A stretch of DNA of 38,996 nt, from contig JABMOG010000234.1 in assembly GCA_013204265.1 (NCBI GenBank), positions 1 to 38,996 of the forward strand. The letters run 5' to 3'. The notes beneath the pieces are model-generated. The model was given only the letters and a program-made list of their open reading frames with translations, did not search any database and had not been told where the DNA came from. The stretch is from Rhodospirillales bacterium. Lineage in GTDB: Bacteria; Pseudomonadota; Alphaproteobacteria; Rhodospirillales; Casp-alpha2. Position 1 is the first letter of the stretch; each line of letters starts with the position of its first letter. Below are positions 1,736 to 17,812 of the stretch, piece after piece. The translations under genes were made by a program, and so were the position numbers.

Positions 1736-2404
1736 TTAGTGATTTGTTGCCAACGCGGCGGATTGCGTTGCTGGCGCGTGTTGACGTCCTGTGACCCAGC
1801 GATAGATGACGTTGCGCCGGGGCGCGACCGGGGTTGCTTGAAGCCTGACCGGTGCCAGGGTTGGGATTTCCATTGCGGTCGTAATACTCCTTACGCTGCT
1901 TGCTGTATTTTTAGCCATCGCCCCGGGGGGAGCGGCCCGGGCCACGCGTTGGGCCGGGCGTTGCGGCCTGGACAGACCGACAACGACGCGCCTGCCATCT
2001 GCCGTGGTGACGACGACATCGGACCTGTAGGGCCTATTAAAGTCGGAGGGTCGGCGTTTATTGATCGCAGACGAAATGACCTGGCCAAGGCGTTTTTGCC
2101 GCAACACCCCATCGGCTTTCATGTGTGAAAAGACGGCGCCCCATCCGCGGCCGTTCATTTTGGCTTTGGCGATAGAGTCGAGGCTCCACACGGGGCTACC
2201 GTCCTCGGCCTGCTGGGCGTTAAAAAGGGCGTCCGCGATATTCTGGTTGCCGGCAGATAGCTGGCTGTAAAAACCGGGCTGGACAATAGGTGCCTGCACA
2301 GTGATTTCCGTATTTCCGCCGCTATCGGCGGGAAGGACGATTTGAGCTGAGGCTTTGCTAGTGATCATCGCGGCGACAAGGCCAAAAATGATGGTTCTGT
2401 GCAT
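1736..2404 (-). CDS. Secreted hypothetical protein
   Basis: 222 aa ORF with N-terminal signal-peptide-like sequence MHRTIIFGLVAAMITSKASAQ; stop/start 3 nt from the upstream lipoprotein gene. Confidence 0.7.
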   Translation of the reverse strand: MHRTIIFGLVAAMITSKASAQIVLPADSGGNTEITVQAPIVQPGFYSQLSAGNQNIADALFNAQQAEDGSPVWSLDSIAKAKMNGRGWGAVFSHMKADGVLRQKRLGQVISSAINKRRPSDFNRPYRSDVVVTTADGRRVVVGLSRPQRPAQRVARAAPPGAMAKNTASSVRSITTAMEIPTLAPVRLQATPVAPRRNVIYRWVTGRQHAPATQSAALATNH

Positions 2405-2407
2405 TTT

Positions 2408-2893
2408 CTAATACTCCTTGTTTAAGGTTGCGGTTTCTTGCGGGTCGAATTCCTGCCCATTTATGTCGTTTTGCTCCATGTCCAGCGTTTGCGCCGTCTG
2501 GATGATAATTTCAGTGGCGGTCGAAGCGTCCTTGAAGAATAGTCCCCTGTGGTTGGCGACGACCCGCATCCGGGTGAGCTGTCGGGTCAGGGCCTCCAAT
2601 TCGATCTCGATGGTTCTATCGCGGGCGATGGCGGTGATGGTCCAGCCTTCGGGTTTGCGAATTTGGTCGGCGATTTCCATGTCCAGGCGGTCGAGCGTGT
2701 TAAACGCGGCTGCGCGCATGTTGTCCATGGAAGTGGAGAACGTTTTGTAGGAAATGCCACTCAGCGTGTGGTCGAGCCCTGCGTCTGCGGCCATGGAGCC
2801 AGCGGTCGCGATAACCCCCGAACATCCCTGTAGAATCACAAGCCCGAGGGCCATGGCCGTAAATCGAGTTGCTATAATTTTATTTCTATACAT
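2408..2893 (-). CDS. Putative lipoprotein, DUF3568-like
   Basis: 161 aa with lipobox-like LVILQGCSG; body resembles small DUF3568-type lipoproteins (family assignment from memory). RBS-like AGGAGG before the ATG. Confidence 0.65.
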   Translation of the reverse strand: MYRNKIIATRFTAMALGLVILQGCSGVIATAGSMAADAGLDHTLSGISYKTFSTSMDNMRAAAFNTLDRLDMEIADQIRKPEGWTITAIARDRTIEIELEALTRQLTRMRVVANHRGLFFKDASTATEIIIQTAQTLDMEQNDINGQEFDPQETATLNKEY

Positions 2894-2921
2894 GGTGTCC
2901 TCCTGTAAAATAATTCTCCTT

Positions 2922-2952
2922 TATTATTGGTGATTTGGTCAAATCAATAATA
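2922..2952. promoter_or_regulatory. Candidate operator: AT-rich inverted repeats upstream of the 2893-1736 operon
   Basis: Palindrome TGATTTG-GT-CAAATCA at 2931-2946 nested in TATTATTG...CAATAATA (2922-2929/2945-2952). Confidence 0.4.
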
Positions 2953-3075
2953 TGCAAGTATTATTCATAAAAATACATTGATAATGCATTTTTTATTTAA
3001 GTAAAAATTTACATAAATTAACGGCGCGCTGACCCATGCCGGGGCGTGCGTCCACCTGTCGTTTGGGGGGGTACC

Positions 3076-3906
3076 CTAGAAGGTGAAGCTGTTGCCGGAG
3101 GCTTGGCCCCAGGCGTCCATGAATTCCGTCAGGTAGGGTCGATCGGCACCCTCCGCCTGGATCAAAGAGACGATGTCGGCGATGGCGGCGTTGTAGCCTC
3201 CGCGCTCCATCGTGCCACGGTGCAGCATCCAGCGCAGGTAAACCAGATAGGTATTCACGACATCGGTTTCGCAGTAATGGCGAACCTCATCGATCCGTCC
3301 GTCGTCGACCATTTGCGCAACATCGGCGCCGGAAACACCGAATTTTCCGGGAAAGCCCATGGCTGAGCAGACTTCGTCCAGGCTGACGCGGGCCGATGCC
3401 CCGTGGTCGGACAGCACGTCGAGCAAGTCGCAGTGCCAGTCGGTGGAATAGCGCTGGGTATAGCTGTTCCATTTGTCACCGGCGCCGTATAGCCAGGGGG
3501 CCGAGATGCCGTGTACCATGGCCCGGTATTTCAGCACCGGCAGATCGAATCCGCGCCCGTTGAAGCTGACCAGTCGGGGTTTCAGCCGTTCGAAATAGCT
3601 GAAAAACCCTTGCAGCAGTTGTTTCTCGTCAAACCCGGCTTCGCCGCCGGAACGCAGTTCACGCAACAGATAGGCCTCTTGGTCCCCAGTACGTTCGATC
3701 TCGGCTTCGAGGAAACTGATCGCCACGACCTTGTGAAAAGGCTGGCGCGGGAAGGCATTTTTACCGCCGGTCTTTTCCAGATGATAGCGTTCCAGCTCTT
3801 CGCGCCGTTCGGCCACACCGGGATCGTCGAACCCGGTCAGGTTGGGCACGGCGTCGGTGTCGGGCACGGTTTCGATATCGAAGACGAAGAGGTTTTGATG
3901 CTGCAT
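3076..3906 (-). CDS. Predicted 3'-5' exonuclease related to PolB exonuclease domain
   Basis: MQHQNLFVFDIETVPD (DxE exo I), LVSFNGRGFDLPVLKYRA (exo II), YCETDVVNTYLVYLR (exo III). Start set at ATG 3906; the ORF-track N-terminal extension is antisense to ybaB. Confidence 0.85.
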   Translation of the reverse strand: MQHQNLFVFDIETVPDTDAVPNLTGFDDPGVAERREELERYHLEKTGGKNAFPRQPFHKVVAISFLEAEIERTGDQEAYLLRELRSGGEAGFDEKQLLQGFFSYFERLKPRLVSFNGRGFDLPVLKYRAMVHGISAPWLYGAGDKWNSYTQRYSTDWHCDLLDVLSDHGASARVSLDEVCSAMGFPGKFGVSGADVAQMVDDGRIDEVRHYCETDVVNTYLVYLRWMLHRGTMERGGYNAAIADIVSLIQAEGADRPYLTEFMDAWGQASGNSFTF

Positions 3907-3969
3907 GGCTGCATGTACTATAACACTGTTCATCGTTTCCGGCCCACTTTCGTGAAAGAAACACCCCTG

Positions 3970-4293
3970 ATGAAAAACCTCGGAGATATGCTGAAGAAGG
4001 CCCAGGACTTCCAGTCCAAAATGACAGGTATGCAGGAAGAACTGGCGGACATGGAAATAACCGGATCGTCCGGCGGCGGCATGGTGCGCGTCACCCTGAA
4101 TGGCAAAGGCGAAGCCCGTGCGATTAAAATCGACCCGGCGCTGGTGACCCCCGACGATGCGCAGGTTCTGGAAGACCTGATTCTCGCCGCCTTTAACGAC
4201 GCCAAGGGCAAGATCGAGACTATGATGCAGGAAAAAATGTCCGATTTGACCGGCGGGATGGGGCTGCCGCCGGGCTTCAAGCTGCCGTTCTAA
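3970..4293 (+). CDS. ybaB: YbaB/EbfC family nucleoid-associated protein
   Basis: [58 protein letters not shown]; located directly upstream of recR. Confidence 0.93.
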
Positions 4294-4310
4294 GGGAATT
4301 TCCACGGATC

Positions 4311-4904
4311 ATGATTTCGCCGGACATCGAGAATCTGATTGCCCTGCTGGCCAAGTTGCCGGGGCTTGGCCCGCGTTCGGCGCGGCGCGCCGTTTTGCAT
4401 CTGATCAAGCGCCGCGAAGCCTTGGGCGCGCCTTTGACCAAGGCCATGACCAACGTTCTCGAGACCGTCAAAACCTGTTCACAATGCGGCAACCTTGATA
4501 CCGTCGACCCGTGCCCGTTGTGTACGGACCCCAAACGCGATGCCGGTTTGATCTGTGTCGTCGAGGATGTCGCCGACCTTTGGGCGTTGGAGCGGGCCAA
4601 GGTGTTCCAAGGCCGCTATCACGTATTGGGCGGGGTTCTGTCGGCGTTGGACGGCGTCGGGCCGGAGGATTTAAACATTCCCGCGCTGATAGAACGCACC
4701 ACCCGCGGCGGAATTCGCGAAGTGATCCTGGCCAACAGCGCCACAGTCGATGGCCAGACCACGGCGCATTATTTGACCGACCTGCTGGCAGGAAGCGGAG
4801 TTGAAATATCCGAACTGGCGCACGGCGTGCCGGTCGGCGGCGAGCTGGATTACCTGGACGATGGAACCCTGGGCGCGGCCCTGAAAGACCGCCGCCCGGT
4901 TTAG
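4311..4904 (+). CDS. recR: Recombination mediator protein RecR
   Basis: [27 protein letters not shown]4 motif [16 protein letters not shown], Toprim region [15 protein letters not shown]. Confidence 0.96.
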
Positions 4905-4908
4905 CGGG

Positions 4909-5958
4909 CTAGACCTCTTTCAACAGGGGCCGGGGGGTGTCCAGGTCTTCCAGCGAATTGTCGTCTTCTAACTGCACATCTTTGATTTTTTGACCGCGAT
5001 CGGTGATTTTCCCGTTCGACGTTGAAATGGCGCCAATGTCATCGCTGGCTTGCCGGAAGTGGGTTTTTAGTTTGCCGACACGGTCGTCCAACAGGCGAAC
5101 ATCATTCAGCAACAATTCGACCTGCTTTTGAATCAGCCCGGCTTGTTCCTTCATCCGGCCATCCTTAAGAATCGAGCCAACGGTATTGACCAAAGCCATC
5201 AGGGTAGACGGCGAGGCAAGCCCGACACGGCGGCGTTGAGCGTCTTCGACGATGTTGGGAAAATTTGAATGGAGTTCGGCAAAGATAGCCTCCGACGGCA
5301 GGAACATGATTGCCCAATCGGTTTCGTTGGCAATGATATATCGGTCGGCAATATGCTTGATATGGGTGTTCACATCCCTGGAAAAATCCCGATTGGCATT
5401 TTTATTATCCGTATCGTTTTTCGCCTGCTGGATGGCGCGGTAGGCCTCCAGGGGGAATTTAGAATCTATCGGTATGATTCCCGGCGGGGACGGCAGCCGT
5501 ATCAGGCAATCAACGCGGTTGCCGTTGGAAAGGGTCGCCTGGAAGTCATAGGCAGAGGGCGGCAAGGCGTCCTTGATCAGGGACTCCATCTGAAATTCCC
5601 CGAAATTCCCCCGCAACTGTTTGTTGGACAGAATATCCTGCAGCCCGACCATCTCTTTTCCCAAATCGGTGATATTTTTCTGCGCCGTATCGATGACGGC
5701 CAAGCGCTCGTGCAGACCTTTGAGCTGTTCGCCGGTTTTCTCGGTATGTTGCACCAGGCCTTCGCCGACTCGTTTAGACAACGCCTCGAGGCGCTCATTC
5801 AGGCTCGATTCGGAATGTTGCACGTGGCCCTTAAGCTCGGCCTGGATATTAATAATCTGGTCCAGTTTTTCGGTCGAAACGGAACCCCCGCGCCGACCTG
5901 CCAAAAACGCGGCTAAGGCCAACACAATCATGACTATAATGGCAATCGTCCAATCCAT
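4909..5958 (-). CDS. rmuC: DNA recombination protein RmuC
   Basis: N-terminal TM helix, coiled coil, RGNFGEFQMESLIKD and VDCLIRLPSPPGIIPIDSKFPLEAYRAI motifs. Confidence 0.92.
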   Translation of the reverse strand: MDWTIAIIVMIVLALAAFLAGRRGGSVSTEKLDQIINIQAELKGHVQHSESSLNERLEALSKRVGEGLVQHTEKTGEQLKGLHERLAVIDTAQKNITDLGKEMVGLQDILSNKQLRGNFGEFQMESLIKDALPPSAYDFQATLSNGNRVDCLIRLPSPPGIIPIDSKFPLEAYRAIQQAKNDTDNKNANRDFSRDVNTHIKHIADRYIIANETDWAIMFLPSEAIFAELHSNFPNIVEDAQRRRVGLASPSTLMALVNTVGSILKDGRMKEQAGLIQKQVELLLNDVRLLDDRVGKLKTHFRQASDDIGAISTSNGKITDRGQKIKDVQLEDDNSLEDLDTPRPLLKEV

Positions 5959-12656: not shown

Positions 12657-13340
12657 CTATTCCGACGTCAAGGCCCCCAGCCAATGGGCCAAATCGTCAA
12701 CCACATGATGAATATGGCTGTCCGCGCGGTCTTCGTGGTTAAGTTCGCTGTCCGATCGCACCCAGACCGTGGTCATGCCCAAGGCGGCGGCTGGTTTCAG
12801 GTTGCGGATCAAATCTTCGACCATCACCGTATTTACCGGTGTCAACTGGTAGCGGTCGACCAGAACGTCGTAGGGGTCAGACCTCGGCTTGGGGATGTAA
12901 TCAGCACTGATGATATCGAAAATGGCCTCGAAATGGTGGCGGATGGAGACCCGGTCGAGAACCCGCTCGGCGTGATCGGTGGTGCCGTTGGTATAAATGA
13001 TTTTCCGGCCCGGTAGCCTGGATAGCGCCTGGCTCAAGTCCGGATCAGGCTCGATCGCGCTCAAGTCGATATCATGCACGTAATCGAGAAAGTCCGCCGG
13101 GTCCATGTCATGCAGGGCCATCATGCCAGACATTGTTGTGCCGTGGTCGCGGTAATAAATTTTTCGAATTTTGCCTGCGTGCACGGGGTCGACGTCGAGA
13201 AAATCGGCGATGTAGGCTGTCATTTTCCGGTCGATCTGAGGGAACAGGTCCGACGAAGCCGGATACAGGGTGTTGTCCAGGTCAAAAACCCAGCATTCGG
13301 CACGGTTCAGCCGGTCTTTGAGCGTCTGGTTTTGTTTCAT
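12657..13340 (-). CDS. HAD-superfamily pyrimidine 5'-nucleotidase-like protein
   Basis: WVFDLDNTLYPAS (DxDxT), IIYTNGT, PKPRSDPYD, VMVEDLIRNLKPA. Confidence 0.88.
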   Translation of the reverse strand: MKQNQTLKDRLNRAECWVFDLDNTLYPASSDLFPQIDRKMTAYIADFLDVDPVHAGKIRKIYYRDHGTTMSGMMALHDMDPADFLDYVHDIDLSAIEPDPDLSQALSRLPGRKIIYTNGTTDHAERVLDRVSIRHHFEAIFDIISADYIPKPRSDPYDVLVDRYQLTPVNTVMVEDLIRNLKPAAALGMTTVWVRSDSELNHEDRADSHIHHVVDDLAHWLGALTSE

Positions 13341-13495
13341 GCGTTTAATATGTAAAACCTTCTATTAAGAATATTGGTTTATGCAGACCTATGGGGTGGC
13401 GGGACAGTTTTTTATCCCATAAAATCACACGATTATATATATTGCCCTAGCGGATTGTCCGCCCTGGGGTTTGAATTTCTGGGATACTTTATTTT

Positions 13496-15247
13496 ATGCC
13501 TACAGACCAGCCTTTAGGGTCGCTTGAAAATCTGGACAAAAACAATGTGTCCGGCGAGCCCTCTCCGCAAGAGGTCTTGCTGGCCGGGTATCCCGGTGCA
13601 GCCCTGCTGGTCAATGGGGAAGGTAAAGTGTCTTGCTCCAATGCCAAGGGCGCCGGTCTGGAAGCCTTGATCCAGCATGAGGCCGCGCCCGAAATCAGGG
13701 AAATGATCGATCATGCCCGCGCCCAGGGCTGCGTCGCCGCCGGTTCGGTGTCGTTAAACAGCGCCAAGGGCGAAATCGTTCTGGAAATTTCCGTCATTCC
13801 CGGCCTAAGTAATGACGGCGAGGTTCTGGTCATGGCCCGTGATATGACGATGGAACGCAATCTTCGCACGGCGCTCGTCGAATCCCGTCAACGGTATAAG
13901 GACCTGGTCGAGGTTTCCAGTGACTTTTCCTGGGAAACCGGGACCGGGGGCGAATTTATTTTCGTCTCGCCGAAGGGTGCGCTGGGCTATCAGGTAGAAG
14001 AACTGATCGGCAAAAAGGCCGAGGAATTTGTCCTTTTGCCGGAGGAATTCTCGCCGCTGCCGTTTGCCAGCTCCAAGGCTTTGGATGATATCGAGATTTG
14101 GATGCGTAACAAGGACGGCTCAACCGCGTGTGTAGTCCTGTCGTGCGTTCCCCTGATAGCCGAGGAAGACGGCGAGGAACAATGGAAAGGTTCGCGTGGC
14201 GTGTGCCGCAACGTGACCGAAGAACGCGAGAACGAGTCCGCCCTGGCCCGGGCCCGGCGCCGGGAACAGCATCTCAACTATATCGTCAGCACCATTCGCG
14301 ACGAGTTGGAGCCCCATAACATGTTGAGCGCGGCGGCGGCGGCTACCGCCCGCGCGCTGGGCGTGACCGGGTGCCGGATTTACCGCAGAGGCCAGGAAGA
14401 ACCCTTCCGCATCGCGGCTGAGCACGGCAACGTTGAAGGACTGGGAGGCCTGGACAACAAACTGGCGGCGCTAGATTCCGGGGACAAACTGGCGGAAATG
14501 CAGATCGGCAAATGGCGGGTCCTGGCGACGGCGACGAATTATCGCCAGCGGATCAACGGCGCCATTTCCATCTGGAAGCCGGTCGATGACGAAGAATGGG
14601 ACGACGACCACCTGTTGTTGATCAGCGATGTCGCTAACCAGTTGGGGATCGCCAACGAACAGATCAGCAATCATGAACGTATTCTGGCCCTGTCGCGAAC
14701 CGACAGCATGACCGGCCTGTTGAACCGGCGGGCATTTTACGAAGAAGACCTGCCCAGGCGAATTTCCCGCCTTCAGCGCAGCCGGGAGACGGCGGCGTTG
14801 TTTTTCGTCGATATGGACAATTTCAAGCGGGTCAATGACGTACATGGACATCAGGCCGGTGATGACGCCATTTTGTCGCTGCGCGATTTGTTGATGGAAA
14901 TGTCCCGGCCCGGCGATGTGATCGCCCGGTTGGGTGGCGATGAATTTGCCATGTGGCTGGACGGAATTTCGCCCAAAGTCACGGAAACACGTGCCGCCCG
15001 GCTGATCGAGGCATCGCACAGTTTGCGAGAGTTCTCAGGCGATGACGACCATCCGCTCGGTATTTCGGTCGGTGTGGCAATTTACGACCCCGATGAAAAT
15101 GAAGCGCTGGAAGACATAGTGGTGCGCGCCGACAAGGCCATGTATGAAGCAAAGAACGCTGGCAAGGGTGGTTACTTTATGGCCGCCCCACCCGTAATAG
15201 CCGATCCGGGTGAAGGCGTCAGAACGATAGAGAAGCCGAAACTGTGA
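13496..15247 (+). CDS. PAS/GAF-GGDEF diguanylate cyclase
   Basis: PAS-like sensor regions, GAF-like segment, and GGDEF domain with RLGGDEFAMWL; RPGD lies exactly five residues before GGDEF, matching an I-site RxxD. Confidence 0.92.
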   Translation: MPTDQPLGSLENLDKNNVSGEPSPQEVLLAGYPGAALLVNGEGKVSCSNAKGAGLEALIQHEAAPEIREMIDHARAQGCVAAGSVSLNSAKGEIVLEISVIPGLSNDGEVLVMARDMTMERNLRTALVESRQRYKDLVEVSSDFSWETGTGGEFIFVSPKGALGYQVEELIGKKAEEFVLLPEEFSPLPFASSKALDDIEIWMRNKDGSTACVVLSCVPLIAEEDGEEQWKGSRGVCRNVTEERENESALARARRREQHLNYIVSTIRDELEPHNMLSAAAAATARALGVTGCRIYRRGQEEPFRIAAEHGNVEGLGGLDNKLAALDSGDKLAEMQIGKWRVLATATNYRQRINGAISIWKPVDDEEWDDDHLLLISDVANQLGIANEQISNHERILALSRTDSMTGLLNRRAFYEEDLPRRISRLQRSRETAALFFVDMDNFKRVNDVHGHQAGDDAILSLRDLLMEMSRPGDVIARLGGDEFAMWLDGISPKVTETRAARLIEASHSLREFSGDDDHPLGISVGVAIYDPDENEALEDIVVRADKAMYEAKNAGKGGYFMAAPPVIADPGEGVRTIEKPKL

Positions 15248-16530
15248 ACAAAGAAGAGCTCCACAACGAAGCAATTTCTTATGAAATCGCTAAGAGACTG
15301 GCTCGGGACGATGATCCCGAGGTGCGCCGGATTTTGGCCCAGCGCAAGGATATGAAACCGGAAATTTTGTATTTTCTCGCCGAAGACACGGACGCCACCG
15401 TGCGCCAGGCGGTGGCCAACAATTTGTCGGCGCCGCCTCAGACGGACGTGTTGTTGGCGAAAGACGATGACGTCGGCGTGCGCGGCGACCTGGCCGACAA
15501 AATCGCCCGCCTGATGCCTGAGTTAAGCGCCGATGAACAGGACAAGGCCCGGCGCACTACCCATGAAGCACTGGAGGTATTGGCCCGGGACCAGATCGCC
15601 AAGGTTCGGGGTATTTTGTCCGACGCGCTGAAGGACATCGCCGACGCGCCCGCTGACGTTATCAAGATCTTGGCCATGGACACCGAGATAGAGGTTTCCG
15701 GGCCAGTGCTCGAATTTTCGCCGGTACTGAGCGACGATGACTTGGTTCAGATCATTGAAAAAGGGCCGGCTAAGGGAGGTGTGAATGCCATTTCCAGACG
15801 CGTCGGCGTGGCCGAGGTCGTTTCCGAAGCCATCGTCGGCACCAATGACATCAACGCCATTGCCGAACTGTTGAGCAACGACTCGGCGCAAATCCGCGAA
15901 GCCACCCTGGACGACCTGATCGAACGCGCGCCAGAAATTGATTTGTGGCACGCCCCCCTGGTGGGGCGGCCGAAGCTGCCCAGTGGCGCGGAAATTCGAC
16001 TGGCCAATTTCCTCGCTGACAACCTGCTGGGGGTTCTCCATGAACGCGCCGATCTTGACGCCGAGACCTTGGATGCGGTCAAGGTCGCGGTGCGCGAACG
16101 TATCGGCAGCGACGACGCGGCCAAGGCGGTGGGCACCGATGGCGGCGGACAGGATTTTCTCAACATGGAAGCGCCCATCGACATGGTGGGCAGGCTGTAT
16201 CAGGCCAGAAAACTGGACGGCAAGGTTATCGGCAAGGCCCTCAATGCGGGGGATTTCAGTTTCGTTCTGGCCGCCCTGATTGTTCGGGCGGAATTGGACG
16301 AGATCCTGGTCAAGCGCGTTTTTCTGGAAAAAAGCGCCAGGGGAATTTGCGCGGTTTCGTGGAAGGCGGACTTGCCGGCCAAAATGTCGACACAAATACA
16401 ACAGCGCATGGGCAGGATCGCCCCTTCAGACGTTCTTATGGAGGACGGCGACAACTATCGTTTAAGCGCAGATGACCTGCAATTCCAGATCGACTTTTTT
16501 ACCGACCTGGCTGCCAAGGGAACTGGGTAA
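15244..16530 (+). CDS. DUF2336-like alpha-helical repeat protein (paralog A)
   Basis: 428 aa; GTG start overlaps the GGDEF gene stop by 4 nt (GTGA). HEAT-like repeats such as DPEVRRILAQRKDMKPEILYFLAEDTDATVRQAVANN. Confidence 0.85.
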   Translation: MNKEELHNEAISYEIAKRLARDDDPEVRRILAQRKDMKPEILYFLAEDTDATVRQAVANNLSAPPQTDVLLAKDDDVGVRGDLADKIARLMPELSADEQDKARRTTHEALEVLARDQIAKVRGILSDALKDIADAPADVIKILAMDTEIEVSGPVLEFSPVLSDDDLVQIIEKGPAKGGVNAISRRVGVAEVVSEAIVGTNDINAIAELLSNDSAQIREATLDDLIERAPEIDLWHAPLVGRPKLPSGAEIRLANFLADNLLGVLHERADLDAETLDAVKVAVRERIGSDDAAKAVGTDGGGQDFLNMEAPIDMVGRLYQARKLDGKVIGKALNAGDFSFVLAALIVRAELDEILVKRVFLEKSARGICAVSWKADLPAKMSTQIQQRMGRIAPSDVLMEDGDNYRLSADDLQFQIDFFTDLAAKGTG

Positions 16531-16537
16531 GAGGCCG

Positions 16538-17812
16538 GTGAAAAGCCTTTTCAAGCGTCTGTTTCAGGGAGATACAAAGGCCGAATCCCTGTCCTATCAC
16601 CAGGCCAAGGAAATGGCCCAGGACAAAGTTGAAGAAGTGCGCCTGGAATTGGCGTCGCGCGCGGATATCGAACCCGAAATCCTGTATTTCCTGACCGAAG
16701 ACCCGTCTCGGGAAGTGCGCCGCCGGATAGCCTCCAACAAGGCAACGCCGGTTCAGGCCGACTTGGTGCTGGCCAAAGACGTTGATCAAGACGTGCGTGG
16801 CGATCTGGCGGAAAAAATCGCCCTGTTGGCGCCGGGCCTAAGCGCCGACGAACAAGATACGATGCGCCGCATGGCTTATGAAGCCCTCGACGTTCTGGCG
16901 CGCGACCAAGTGACCCGTGTCCGACAGATATTGTCCGAAGCCCTGAAAGATGTCGCTGATGCGCCGCCCGACGTCATCCGCCGACTGGCGTCCGATGTGG
17001 AACTGGTGGTGGCCGGGCCGGTACTGCAATATTCACCGGTTCTGACCATAGACGACTTGCTCGAAATCATCCAAAACAATTCAACGACGGGAATCCTTTC
17101 CGCTGTTGCCCAGCGCAACGAAGTTCCGGCGACGCTGGCCGACGTCATTGCCGCGACCTATGACGAGGAAGCGGTGGCGCTTTTACTTAACAATCCGAGC
17201 GCCCAGATCCGCGAAGAAATGCTGGACCGTATCATTGACCGGGCGGCGGATATAGACCCCTGGCACGAGCCATTGGTGCATCGGCCCAGCTTGCCTGGTC
17301 GGGCCGCGGCCAAGCTGGCGCGGTTCGTCGCCCACATTTTACTCAAAGCGCTCCAGGAACGCCATGATTTGGAACCGGAGGTCATGCAGGAGGTCCGAGA
17401 CCTCGTCAACAAGCGGCTCGAGGATGAATCCCCGGAAGTGGCGGGCATGGAAAAAACCTCCGCCGGCGAAGCCTTGGAAAAGATCGGCCAATTACACGCC
17501 GAGGGAGCCTTAAGCGAAGCGGTGATCGCCGACATGGTCAAAAGCGGGGATCGGGAAATGACCATTGCCGCCTTGGCGGCCATGGCCGGCCTGAAAGTGG
17601 GGTCCGTCCGCTCGGCGATTTTAAACCGTAGCGCCAAAGGCATGGTGGCAATTTCCTGGAAATCCGGACTGAGCGCAAAACTTAGCGAAATCCTGCAAAA
17701 AGACCTTGCCTTGATTACGCCATCGGAAATGTTGCGGGCCGACGGCGGGAGATACCCGCTCGACGAAAGCGCCATGGAATGGCAACTGGACTTTATTAAG
17801 GATCTCGGTTGA
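16538..17812 (+). CDS. DUF2336-like alpha-helical repeat protein (paralog B)
   Basis: Aligns by eye over its length with paralog A (e.g. PEILYFLTEDPSREVRRRIASN; LSADEQDTMRRMAYEALDVLARDQVTRVRQILSEALKDVADAP). Likely GTG start at 16538, 7 nt after the upstream stop. Confidence 0.83.
   Translation: MKSLFKRLFQGDTKAESLSYHQAKEMAQDKVEEVRLELASRADIEPEILYFLTEDPSREVRRRIASNKATPVQADLVLAKDVDQDVRGDLAEKIALLAPGLSADEQDTMRRMAYEALDVLARDQVTRVRQILSEALKDVADAPPDVIRRLASDVELVVAGPVLQYSPVLTIDDLLEIIQNNSTTGILSAVAQRNEVPATLADVIAATYDEEAVALLLNNPSAQIREEMLDRIIDRAADIDPWHEPLVHRPSLPGRAAAKLARFVAHILLKALQERHDLEPEVMQEVRDLVNKRLEDESPEVAGMEKTSAGEALEKIGQLHAEGALSEAVIADMVKSGDREMTIAALAAMAGLKVGSVRSAILNRSAKGMVAISWKSGLSAKLSEILQKDLALITPSEMLRADGGRYPLDESAMEWQLDFIKDLG

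What the first reader, a model, noticed from the sequence alone, without database searches (positions are those of the whole stretch)
13496..17812. Coupled module: diguanylate cyclase plus two tandem DUF2336-like repeat proteins
Seen: a PAS/GAF-GGDEF gene is followed by a DUF2336-like gene through a 4-nt GTGA overlap, then a second paralog after 7 nt, all on one strand and with no other gene. This tight linkage suggests the helical-repeat proteins act with c-di-GMP signalling, as effectors, regulators or scaffolds. DUF2336 proteins are common in alphaproteobacteria, but I know of no established biochemical role. The functional link is inference.
Basis: partly seen in the sequence, partly recalled or inferred. 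Interest (0 to 1): 0.62.

Follow-up and report, generated by a model that had tools for sequence, protein, structure and literature searches.

The report
Conserved cyclase plus helical-repeat partner operon
Across many related bacteria, a gene for an enzyme that makes the signal molecule c-di-GMP is almost always followed directly by a gene for a helical-repeat protein of unknown function, which suggests that this protein is a dedicated partner of the enzyme and makes the idea easy to test.

Summary
A PAS-PAS-GAF-GGDEF gene (13496-15247) overlaps a DUF2336 gene (15244-16530) by GTGA; a second DUF2336 gene (16538-17812) follows after 7 nt. It is not local: of 69 orthologous cyclase loci read class-wide, 68 have DUF2336 directly downstream on the same strand, also where flanking genes differ (Thalassospira). 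145 of 147 cyclases keep GGDEF and 134 the RxxD inhibition site. A single DUF2336 partner is ancestral; the a/b pair arose by duplication in the window's order. Copy b and most single partners carry a basic amphipathic N-terminus that copy a lacks. Cyclase and copy a covary in evolutionary rate about as strongly as dapD-dapE. Other DUF2336 paralogs sit beside another membrane cyclase, kinase/regulator pairs, PilZ and Tad-pilus genes; family presence tracks flagella and Tad pili. Best reading: DUF2336 is a HEAT-solenoid adaptor that docks and places the cyclase. The functional link is strong; binding is untested, and a linked AlphaFold model showed no fixed interface. Three genomes keep the cyclase without detectable DUF2336, so it is not an obligate subunit. 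The one characterised relative, Caulobacter SpbR, is not an ortholog.

The parts
13341..13495 (+). intergenic region upstream of the module, presumed to hold its promoter; divergent from the nucleotidase gene 12657-13340
   Evidence: no promoter called above chance
13496..15247 (+). diguanylate cyclase gene, 583 aa: weak N-terminal PAS, PAS_9 (aa 149-242), weak GAF (aa 274-386), GGDEF (aa 402-557)
   Evidence: Pfam; orthologs in 71 of 289 class genomes
14906..14917 (+). RPGD, the RxxD product-inhibition (I) site of the cyclase
   Evidence: alignment A3; kept in 134 of 147 modules
14933..14947 (+). GGDEF active-site motif
   Evidence: GGDEF in 145 of 147 modules
15244..15247 (+). GTGA overlap of the cyclase stop and the DUFa start (translational coupling)
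   Evidence: 60 of 107 distinct junctions overlap
15244..16530 (+). DUFa, first DUF2336 gene, 428 aa: N-terminal HEAT-like repeats and DUF2336 core (15694-16419); no amphipathic N-terminus
   Evidence: PF10098 152.4 bits; AF2 all-helical solenoid, pLDDT 91
16531..16537 (+). 7-nt spacer GAGGCCG with an SD-like GAGG
16538..17812 (+). DUFb, second DUF2336 gene, GTG start, 424 aa; DUF2336 core 17009-17701
   Evidence: PF10098 164.3 bits; start supported by homologs
16538..16585 (+). basic amphipathic N-terminus of DUFb (MKSLFKRLFQGDTKAE), possible membrane-binding helix
   Evidence: conserved in DUFb and most single partners, absent in DUFa; moment 0.52 against 0.40 shuffled, charge +1.8

Best explanation
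A self-contained cytosolic c-di-GMP module. The PAS/GAF protein senses an internal cue and makes c-di-GMP, with product inhibition through its RxxD site. DUF2336 is a dedicated HEAT-type solenoid adaptor whose synthesis is coupled to the cyclase. It docks on the cyclase and sets where, and perhaps when, it works. The ancestral single partner joins both jobs: a solenoid that meets the cyclase, and a basic amphipathic N-terminus that can sit on the membrane or pole. In the window's order the partner duplicated: DUFa became the soluble, cyclase-facing copy and DUFb kept the membrane-type N-terminus. The output is probably the motile/sessile programme (flagella, Tad pili). Shown by computation: gene order, conservation, intact cyclase motifs, solenoid fold, duplication, N-terminal difference, rate covariation, co-occurrence. 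Inferred: physical binding, membrane targeting, effect on activity, output.
For: DUF2336 directly follows the cyclase in 68 of 69 class-wide loci, also in new contexts (Thalassospira L149 and others). Cyclase motifs intact in 145/147. Cyclase-DUFa is the strongest covarying pair among 7-8 linked genes (residual r 0.66, p 4.6e-5; 0.78, p 1.5e-6) and equals dapD-dapE over 50 taxa (0.52 against 0.54). DUFa is monophyletic (support 1.0) and derived. N-terminus. HEAT-solenoid fold, nearest to scaffold proteins. Other DUF2336 paralogs beside other signalling and Tad genes. The cyclase persists after partner loss, as expected if the partner places rather than builds the enzyme.
Against: AF2 of a linked cyclase-DUFa chain gave pTM 0.47 with a disordered linker, so no fixed interface. 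Most loci share ancestry and synteny. Cyclase-DUFb covariation depends on the controls (0.03, 0.61-0.68), so the division of labour is weakly supported. Some single partners lack the amphipathic N-terminus. No binding, activity or localisation data exist.
Confidence: 0.5

Rival explanations
1. DUF2336 is the dedicated c-di-GMP receptor (effector) of this cyclase: it binds the product and passes the signal to a target without touching the enzyme.
For: Operon partnership with an intact cyclase and presence near other c-di-GMP genes.
Against: No known c-di-GMP-binding domain found. Paralogs also sit with kinase/regulator pairs and Tad genes that lack a cyclase. Rates covary with the cyclase protein itself.
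Confidence: 0.2
2. DUF2336 is a catalytic modulator: it binds the cyclase to switch dimerisation or activity on or off, as SiaC does for SiaD, without a role in location.
For: A precedent of an operon-encoded partner activating a cyclase (PMC8457831); tight coupling; rate covariation.
Against: The cyclase survives with intact motifs in three genomes without detectable DUF2336, which an obligate activator would not allow. The conserved membrane-type N-terminus is not explained.
Confidence: 0.2
3. Mere conserved synteny: the genes share a promoter and a slowly changing neighbourhood, with no shared function.
For: Most copies lie in the same spot between dapD and argB, so loci are not independent.
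Against: The pair stays together where the flanks differ; overlaps recur; duplications happen inside the unit; other DUF2336 paralogs pair with unrelated signalling genes; adjacent argB-engB covaries much less (0.23 and 0.07).
Confidence: 0.07

Closest known systems
SpbR (Caulobacter crescentus), NCBIfam NF052659
   Same: Same Pfam family, DUF2336; best NCBIfam match of both proteins (E 1.2e-43 and 3.9e-47).
   Different: 149.6 and 161.1 bits against a cut-off of 400. The window's copies are about 430 aa and belong to a clade separate from the shorter SpbR-type paralogs. No cyclase partner of SpbR is known to me.
SiaC-SiaD (Pseudomonas aeruginosa)
   Same: Cyclase with an operon-encoded binding partner that controls it (PMC8457831).
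   Different: The cyclase is not SiaD (115.6 bits against cut-off 290), and the DUF2336 proteins match no SiaC-type family.
DgcY-HhmR (Halomonas) simple cyclase cassette
   Same: Cyclase regulated by a partner protein; simple cyclase cassettes are described as widespread and little explored (PMC12421958).
   Different: HhmR is a LysR-type regulator and DgcY a six-transmembrane cyclase without the autoinhibitory site; here the partner is a HEAT solenoid and the cyclase is soluble with an RxxD site.
PP2A A-subunit and other HEAT scaffolds
   Same: Closest solved sequences (E 4.5e-7 over about 95 residues) and folds (Foldseek E 3.9e-4).
   Different: Low TM-score (0.3-0.4): generic repeat resemblance, no evidence of common function.

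Membership tests
DUF2336 (PF10098) | Score above the Pfam gathering cut-off (34.6 bits) | tested here: met
   152.4 and 164.3 bits
SpbR (NF052659) | Score above the equivalog cut-off (400 bits) | tested here: not met
   149.6 and 161.1 bits
SpbR (NF052659) | Cell-pole role | not testable with these tools
   needs imaging
Diguanylate cyclase | GGDEF domain with intact active-site motif | tested here: met
   129.6 bits against 23.8; GGDEF in 145/147 modules
Diguanylate cyclase | RxxD product-inhibition site | tested here: met
   RPGD in the window; 134/147 modules
Diguanylate cyclase | Makes c-di-GMP | not testable with these tools
   needs an enzyme assay
SiaC-SiaD partner system | Cyclase is SiaD (NF038266); partner is of the SiaC family | tested here: not met
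   SiaD model 115.6 bits against cut-off 290; only DUF2336 and weak HEAT-type matches for the partners
HEAT-repeat alpha-solenoid | All-helical repeat solenoid fold | tested here: met
   AF2 of DUFa all-helical, pLDDT 91; HEAT/ARM proteins are the best fold matches
Cyclase-binding adaptor | Physical interaction with the cyclase | tested here: inconclusive
   Linked AF2 model pTM 0.47; rate covariation is indirect

The most novel reading that the evidence does not exclude
DUF2336 is an alphaproteobacterial family of HEAT-solenoid adaptors, each clade dedicated to one signalling or polar machine (this cyclase, another membrane cyclase, kinase/regulator pairs, Tad pili), which place signalling enzymes at the membrane or pole. 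SpbR would be one member, and local c-di-GMP pools would be set by such adaptors.
Probability: 0.3. Interest if true: 0.75.

Novelty: new variant of a known kind. Interest (0 to 1): 0.55.

Why it matters
DUF2336 is a class-wide family (147 of 289 sampled alphaproteobacterial genomes, often several copies each) with hardly any known biochemistry. A near-invariant operon with an intact cyclase gives it a concrete, testable partner in cultivable genera (Azospirillum, Magnetospirillum, Thalassospira). If the partner positions the cyclase, it offers a handle on how bacteria with many cyclases keep c-di-GMP signals apart.

Tried and rejected
(1) DUF2336 as a flagella-only factor: among close relatives, 5 of 6 genomes without DUF2336 still have FliG, although class-wide the association is strong. 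(2) Dependence on the PopZ polar hub: PopZ (PF10691) is present in 5 of 6 DUF2336-less relatives. (3) A linked cyclase-DUFa AF2 chain: no confident orientation, and no coordinates were available to inspect. (4) Locating the covariation in one cyclase domain: all domains show similar modest values. (5) CtrA or sigma-54 sites upstream of the cyclase: scattered matches with one to three mismatches, none conserved; the promoter/terminator scan found no more sites than shuffles. (6) DUFb as decoupled from the cyclase: 0.03 but 0.61-0.68 with other control sets, so dropped. (7) Papers: no hit for DUF2336, PF10098 or COG5330 in the open-access library, none joining diguanylate cyclase, HEAT repeat and Alphaproteobacteria. 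The SpbR paper itself is not held; only its title was verified.
Full report
WHAT IS THERE. The window (from a 3.1 Mb, 371-contig assembly; nearest named records are uncultured MAGs such as NIOZ-UU45 and casp-alpha2) holds three genes on the + strand: a cyclase at 13496-15247, DUFa at 15244-16530 and DUFb at 16538-17812. Genes 1 and 2 share GTGA; 7 nt with an SD-like GAGG separate genes 2 and 3. The unit is bounded by a divergent nucleotidase-like gene and a convergent argB, so by layout it is a free-standing transcription unit. No promoter or terminator could be called above chance. The cyclase has a strong GGDEF domain and PAS_9; the first PAS and the GAF are sub-threshold. Both other proteins are PF10098/DUF2336 far above cut-off and resemble, but fail the cut-off of, NCBIfam's SpbR model.

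IS IT MORE THAN LOCAL. In relatives of the window's genus, family and order, 22 fetched loci have the same three genes in the same order with one-to-one best matches, usually between PyrNase-dapD-dapE and argB-engB-yidC. To avoid looking only from DUF2336, I searched 289 genomes spread over the class with the full-length cyclase profile: 71 have a match at E<=1e-90. Of 69 such loci outside the window that I read, 68 have a DUF2336 gene directly downstream on the same strand. The exception, L211, is a copy with an internal stop in a genome whose second copy does have DUF2336. By genome, 70 of 71 carriers have DUF2336 against 77 of 218 others; the odd one, G162, matched over profile positions 30-299 only. 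Named genera with the pair include Azospirillum, Magnetospirillum, Thalassospira, Telmatospirillum and Caenispirillum. In the Thalassospira loci, L140 and L171 none of the usual flanking genes is near, yet the pair is intact. Junctions are tight: 60 of 107 distinct ones overlap and the rest lie within 60 nt. In a phylum-wide sample, all 87 of 399 genomes with DUF2336 belong to the window's class.

ANATOMY AND HISTORY. Of 147 distinct modules, 145 cyclases have GGDEF, 1 has GGEEF, and 134 have RxxD at the inhibitory position, so the enzyme is expected to be active and product-inhibited (inference from established cyclase biochemistry). In a 224-protein tree the roughly 430-aa DUF2336 clade (support 0.92) is separate from the shorter SpbR-type paralogs, and DUFa forms one clade (support 1.0), while DUFb mixes with the single partners. 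A single partner is thus ancestral and DUFa the derived copy. L195 and L196 show another doubling, DUF-cyclase-DUF. DUFb and most single partners start with a basic amphipathic stretch (MKSLFKRLF, MSNLLKRLLG, MIRLFGRKG); DUFa does not. AF2 gives an all-helical solenoid for DUFa (pLDDT 91); its nearest solved relatives are HEAT proteins, above all the PP2A A-subunit scaffold, at low TM-score.

DO THEY EVOLVE TOGETHER. Using the neighbours argB, engB, yidC, PyrNase, dapD and dapE from the same loci as controls, I fixed the topology and compared branch-wise rates. Cyclase-DUFa (or cyclase-single partner) is the top pair with 17 taxa (residual r 0.66, p 4.6e-5), 15 taxa (0.78, p 1.5e-6), 34 taxa (0.57) and in three further sets (0.68-0.79). 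With 50 taxa it is 0.52, level with dapD-dapE (0.54). Adjacency alone does not explain it: argB-engB is 0.23 and 0.07 in the same analyses. The idea that DUFb is decoupled from the cyclase (0.03) did not hold with other control sets (0.61-0.68) and I do not rely on it. Several taxon sets and control schemes were tried; p-values are uncorrected.

WIDER FAMILY. SpbR-type paralogs also sit in signalling contexts. A GGEEF cyclase with a hydrophobic, apparently six-helix membrane part precedes one in five large genomes (L226, L227, L229, L232, L246; membrane part judged by eye). A PAS-GGDEF-EAL gene overlaps one in L258 (EAL judged by eye). An OmpR-type regulator and a PAS kinase flank one in L271 and in L028. 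Among 41 operon-like neighbours 4 have GGDEF, 4 TadE, 3 kinase domains and 1 CheR. PilZ genes lie beside two unlinked 430-aa paralogs, L069 and L070. The window genome has its own Tad-TadE-DUF2336 row (L262). Class-wide, DUF2336 is in 78 of 89 genomes with both FliG and TadE, 48 of 81 with FliG only, 14 of 34 with TadE only and 7 of 85 with neither. Among close relatives all 6 genomes without DUF2336 in the Pfam search also lack TadE (25 of 35 others have it; p 0.002), while FliG and PopZ show no such link. These tests are not corrected for phylogeny, genome size or assembly gaps. They agree with the report that SpbR is lost together with flagella, holdfast and c-di-GMP regulators in Caulobacterales (PMC12700997).

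NATURAL LOSSES. G008, G019 and G021 keep the cyclase with intact motifs but have no detectable DUF2336; downstream of the cyclase, G008 and G021 retain what reads by eye as short decayed DUF2336 sequence. G005 keeps only a broken DUF2336 tail between argB and PyrNase. G015 keeps DUFb without cyclase or DUFa at the locus. G017 and G035 lack the cyclase; G035 shows only a broken DUF2336 fragment. The cyclase can therefore persist without the partner, and DUF2336 paralogs tend to go together, as expected of adaptors that serve a shared programme.

MECHANISM. I favour a dedicated solenoid adaptor that docks the cyclase and places it, with division of labour after duplication in this order (0.5). 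Receptor (0.2) and catalytic modulator (0.2) remain open; mere synteny is unlikely (0.07). A read-through linked AF2 chain of cyclase and DUFa from L050 gave good domains but pTM 0.47 and a disordered linker: no support, but also a poor test for an enzyme expected to work as a dimer.

NOVELTY. Cyclases with dedicated partners are known (SiaC-SiaD, DgcY-HhmR). A DUF2336 partner is not described in the literature I could search. The kind is known; the partner fold, its spread and its duplication are new.

Noticed in passing
L262 (G000:C124), 2236-5738: Another DUF2336 paralog of the window's own genome follows Tad-pilus genes (Tad/TadE-like, then TadE, then DUF2336 after 12 nt) on one strand; TadE also precedes DUF2336 in other relatives.
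   Followed up: partly
L271 3439-6436; L028: A DUF2336 gene lies inside a two-component operon: OmpR-type response regulator, DUF2336, PAS histidine kinase.
   Followed up: partly
L255 4300-6620, L256 3416-5830, L257 3658-5997: A second, unrelated GGEEF cyclase with a hydrophobic membrane part is followed by an SpbR-type DUF2336 in large genomes of one family.
   Followed up: partly
L069 4577-6665; L070 4512-6246: Unlinked 430-aa DUF2336 paralogs lie beside a convergent PilZ-domain gene (c-di-GMP receptor family).
   Followed up: partly
L195 2134-6680; L196 2067-6593: In one genus the cyclase is flanked by DUF2336 genes on both sides, a separate doubling of the partner.
   Followed up: no
L211 and L217 (G141): One genome has two copies of the cyclase, both with an in-frame stop in the profile match; one copy has lost the DUF2336 neighbour.
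   Followed up: no
G005, G008, G017, G019, G021, G035: Close relatives mostly have either several DUF2336 genes or no intact one, as if the paralogs are lost together; all six also lack TadE.
   Followed up: partly
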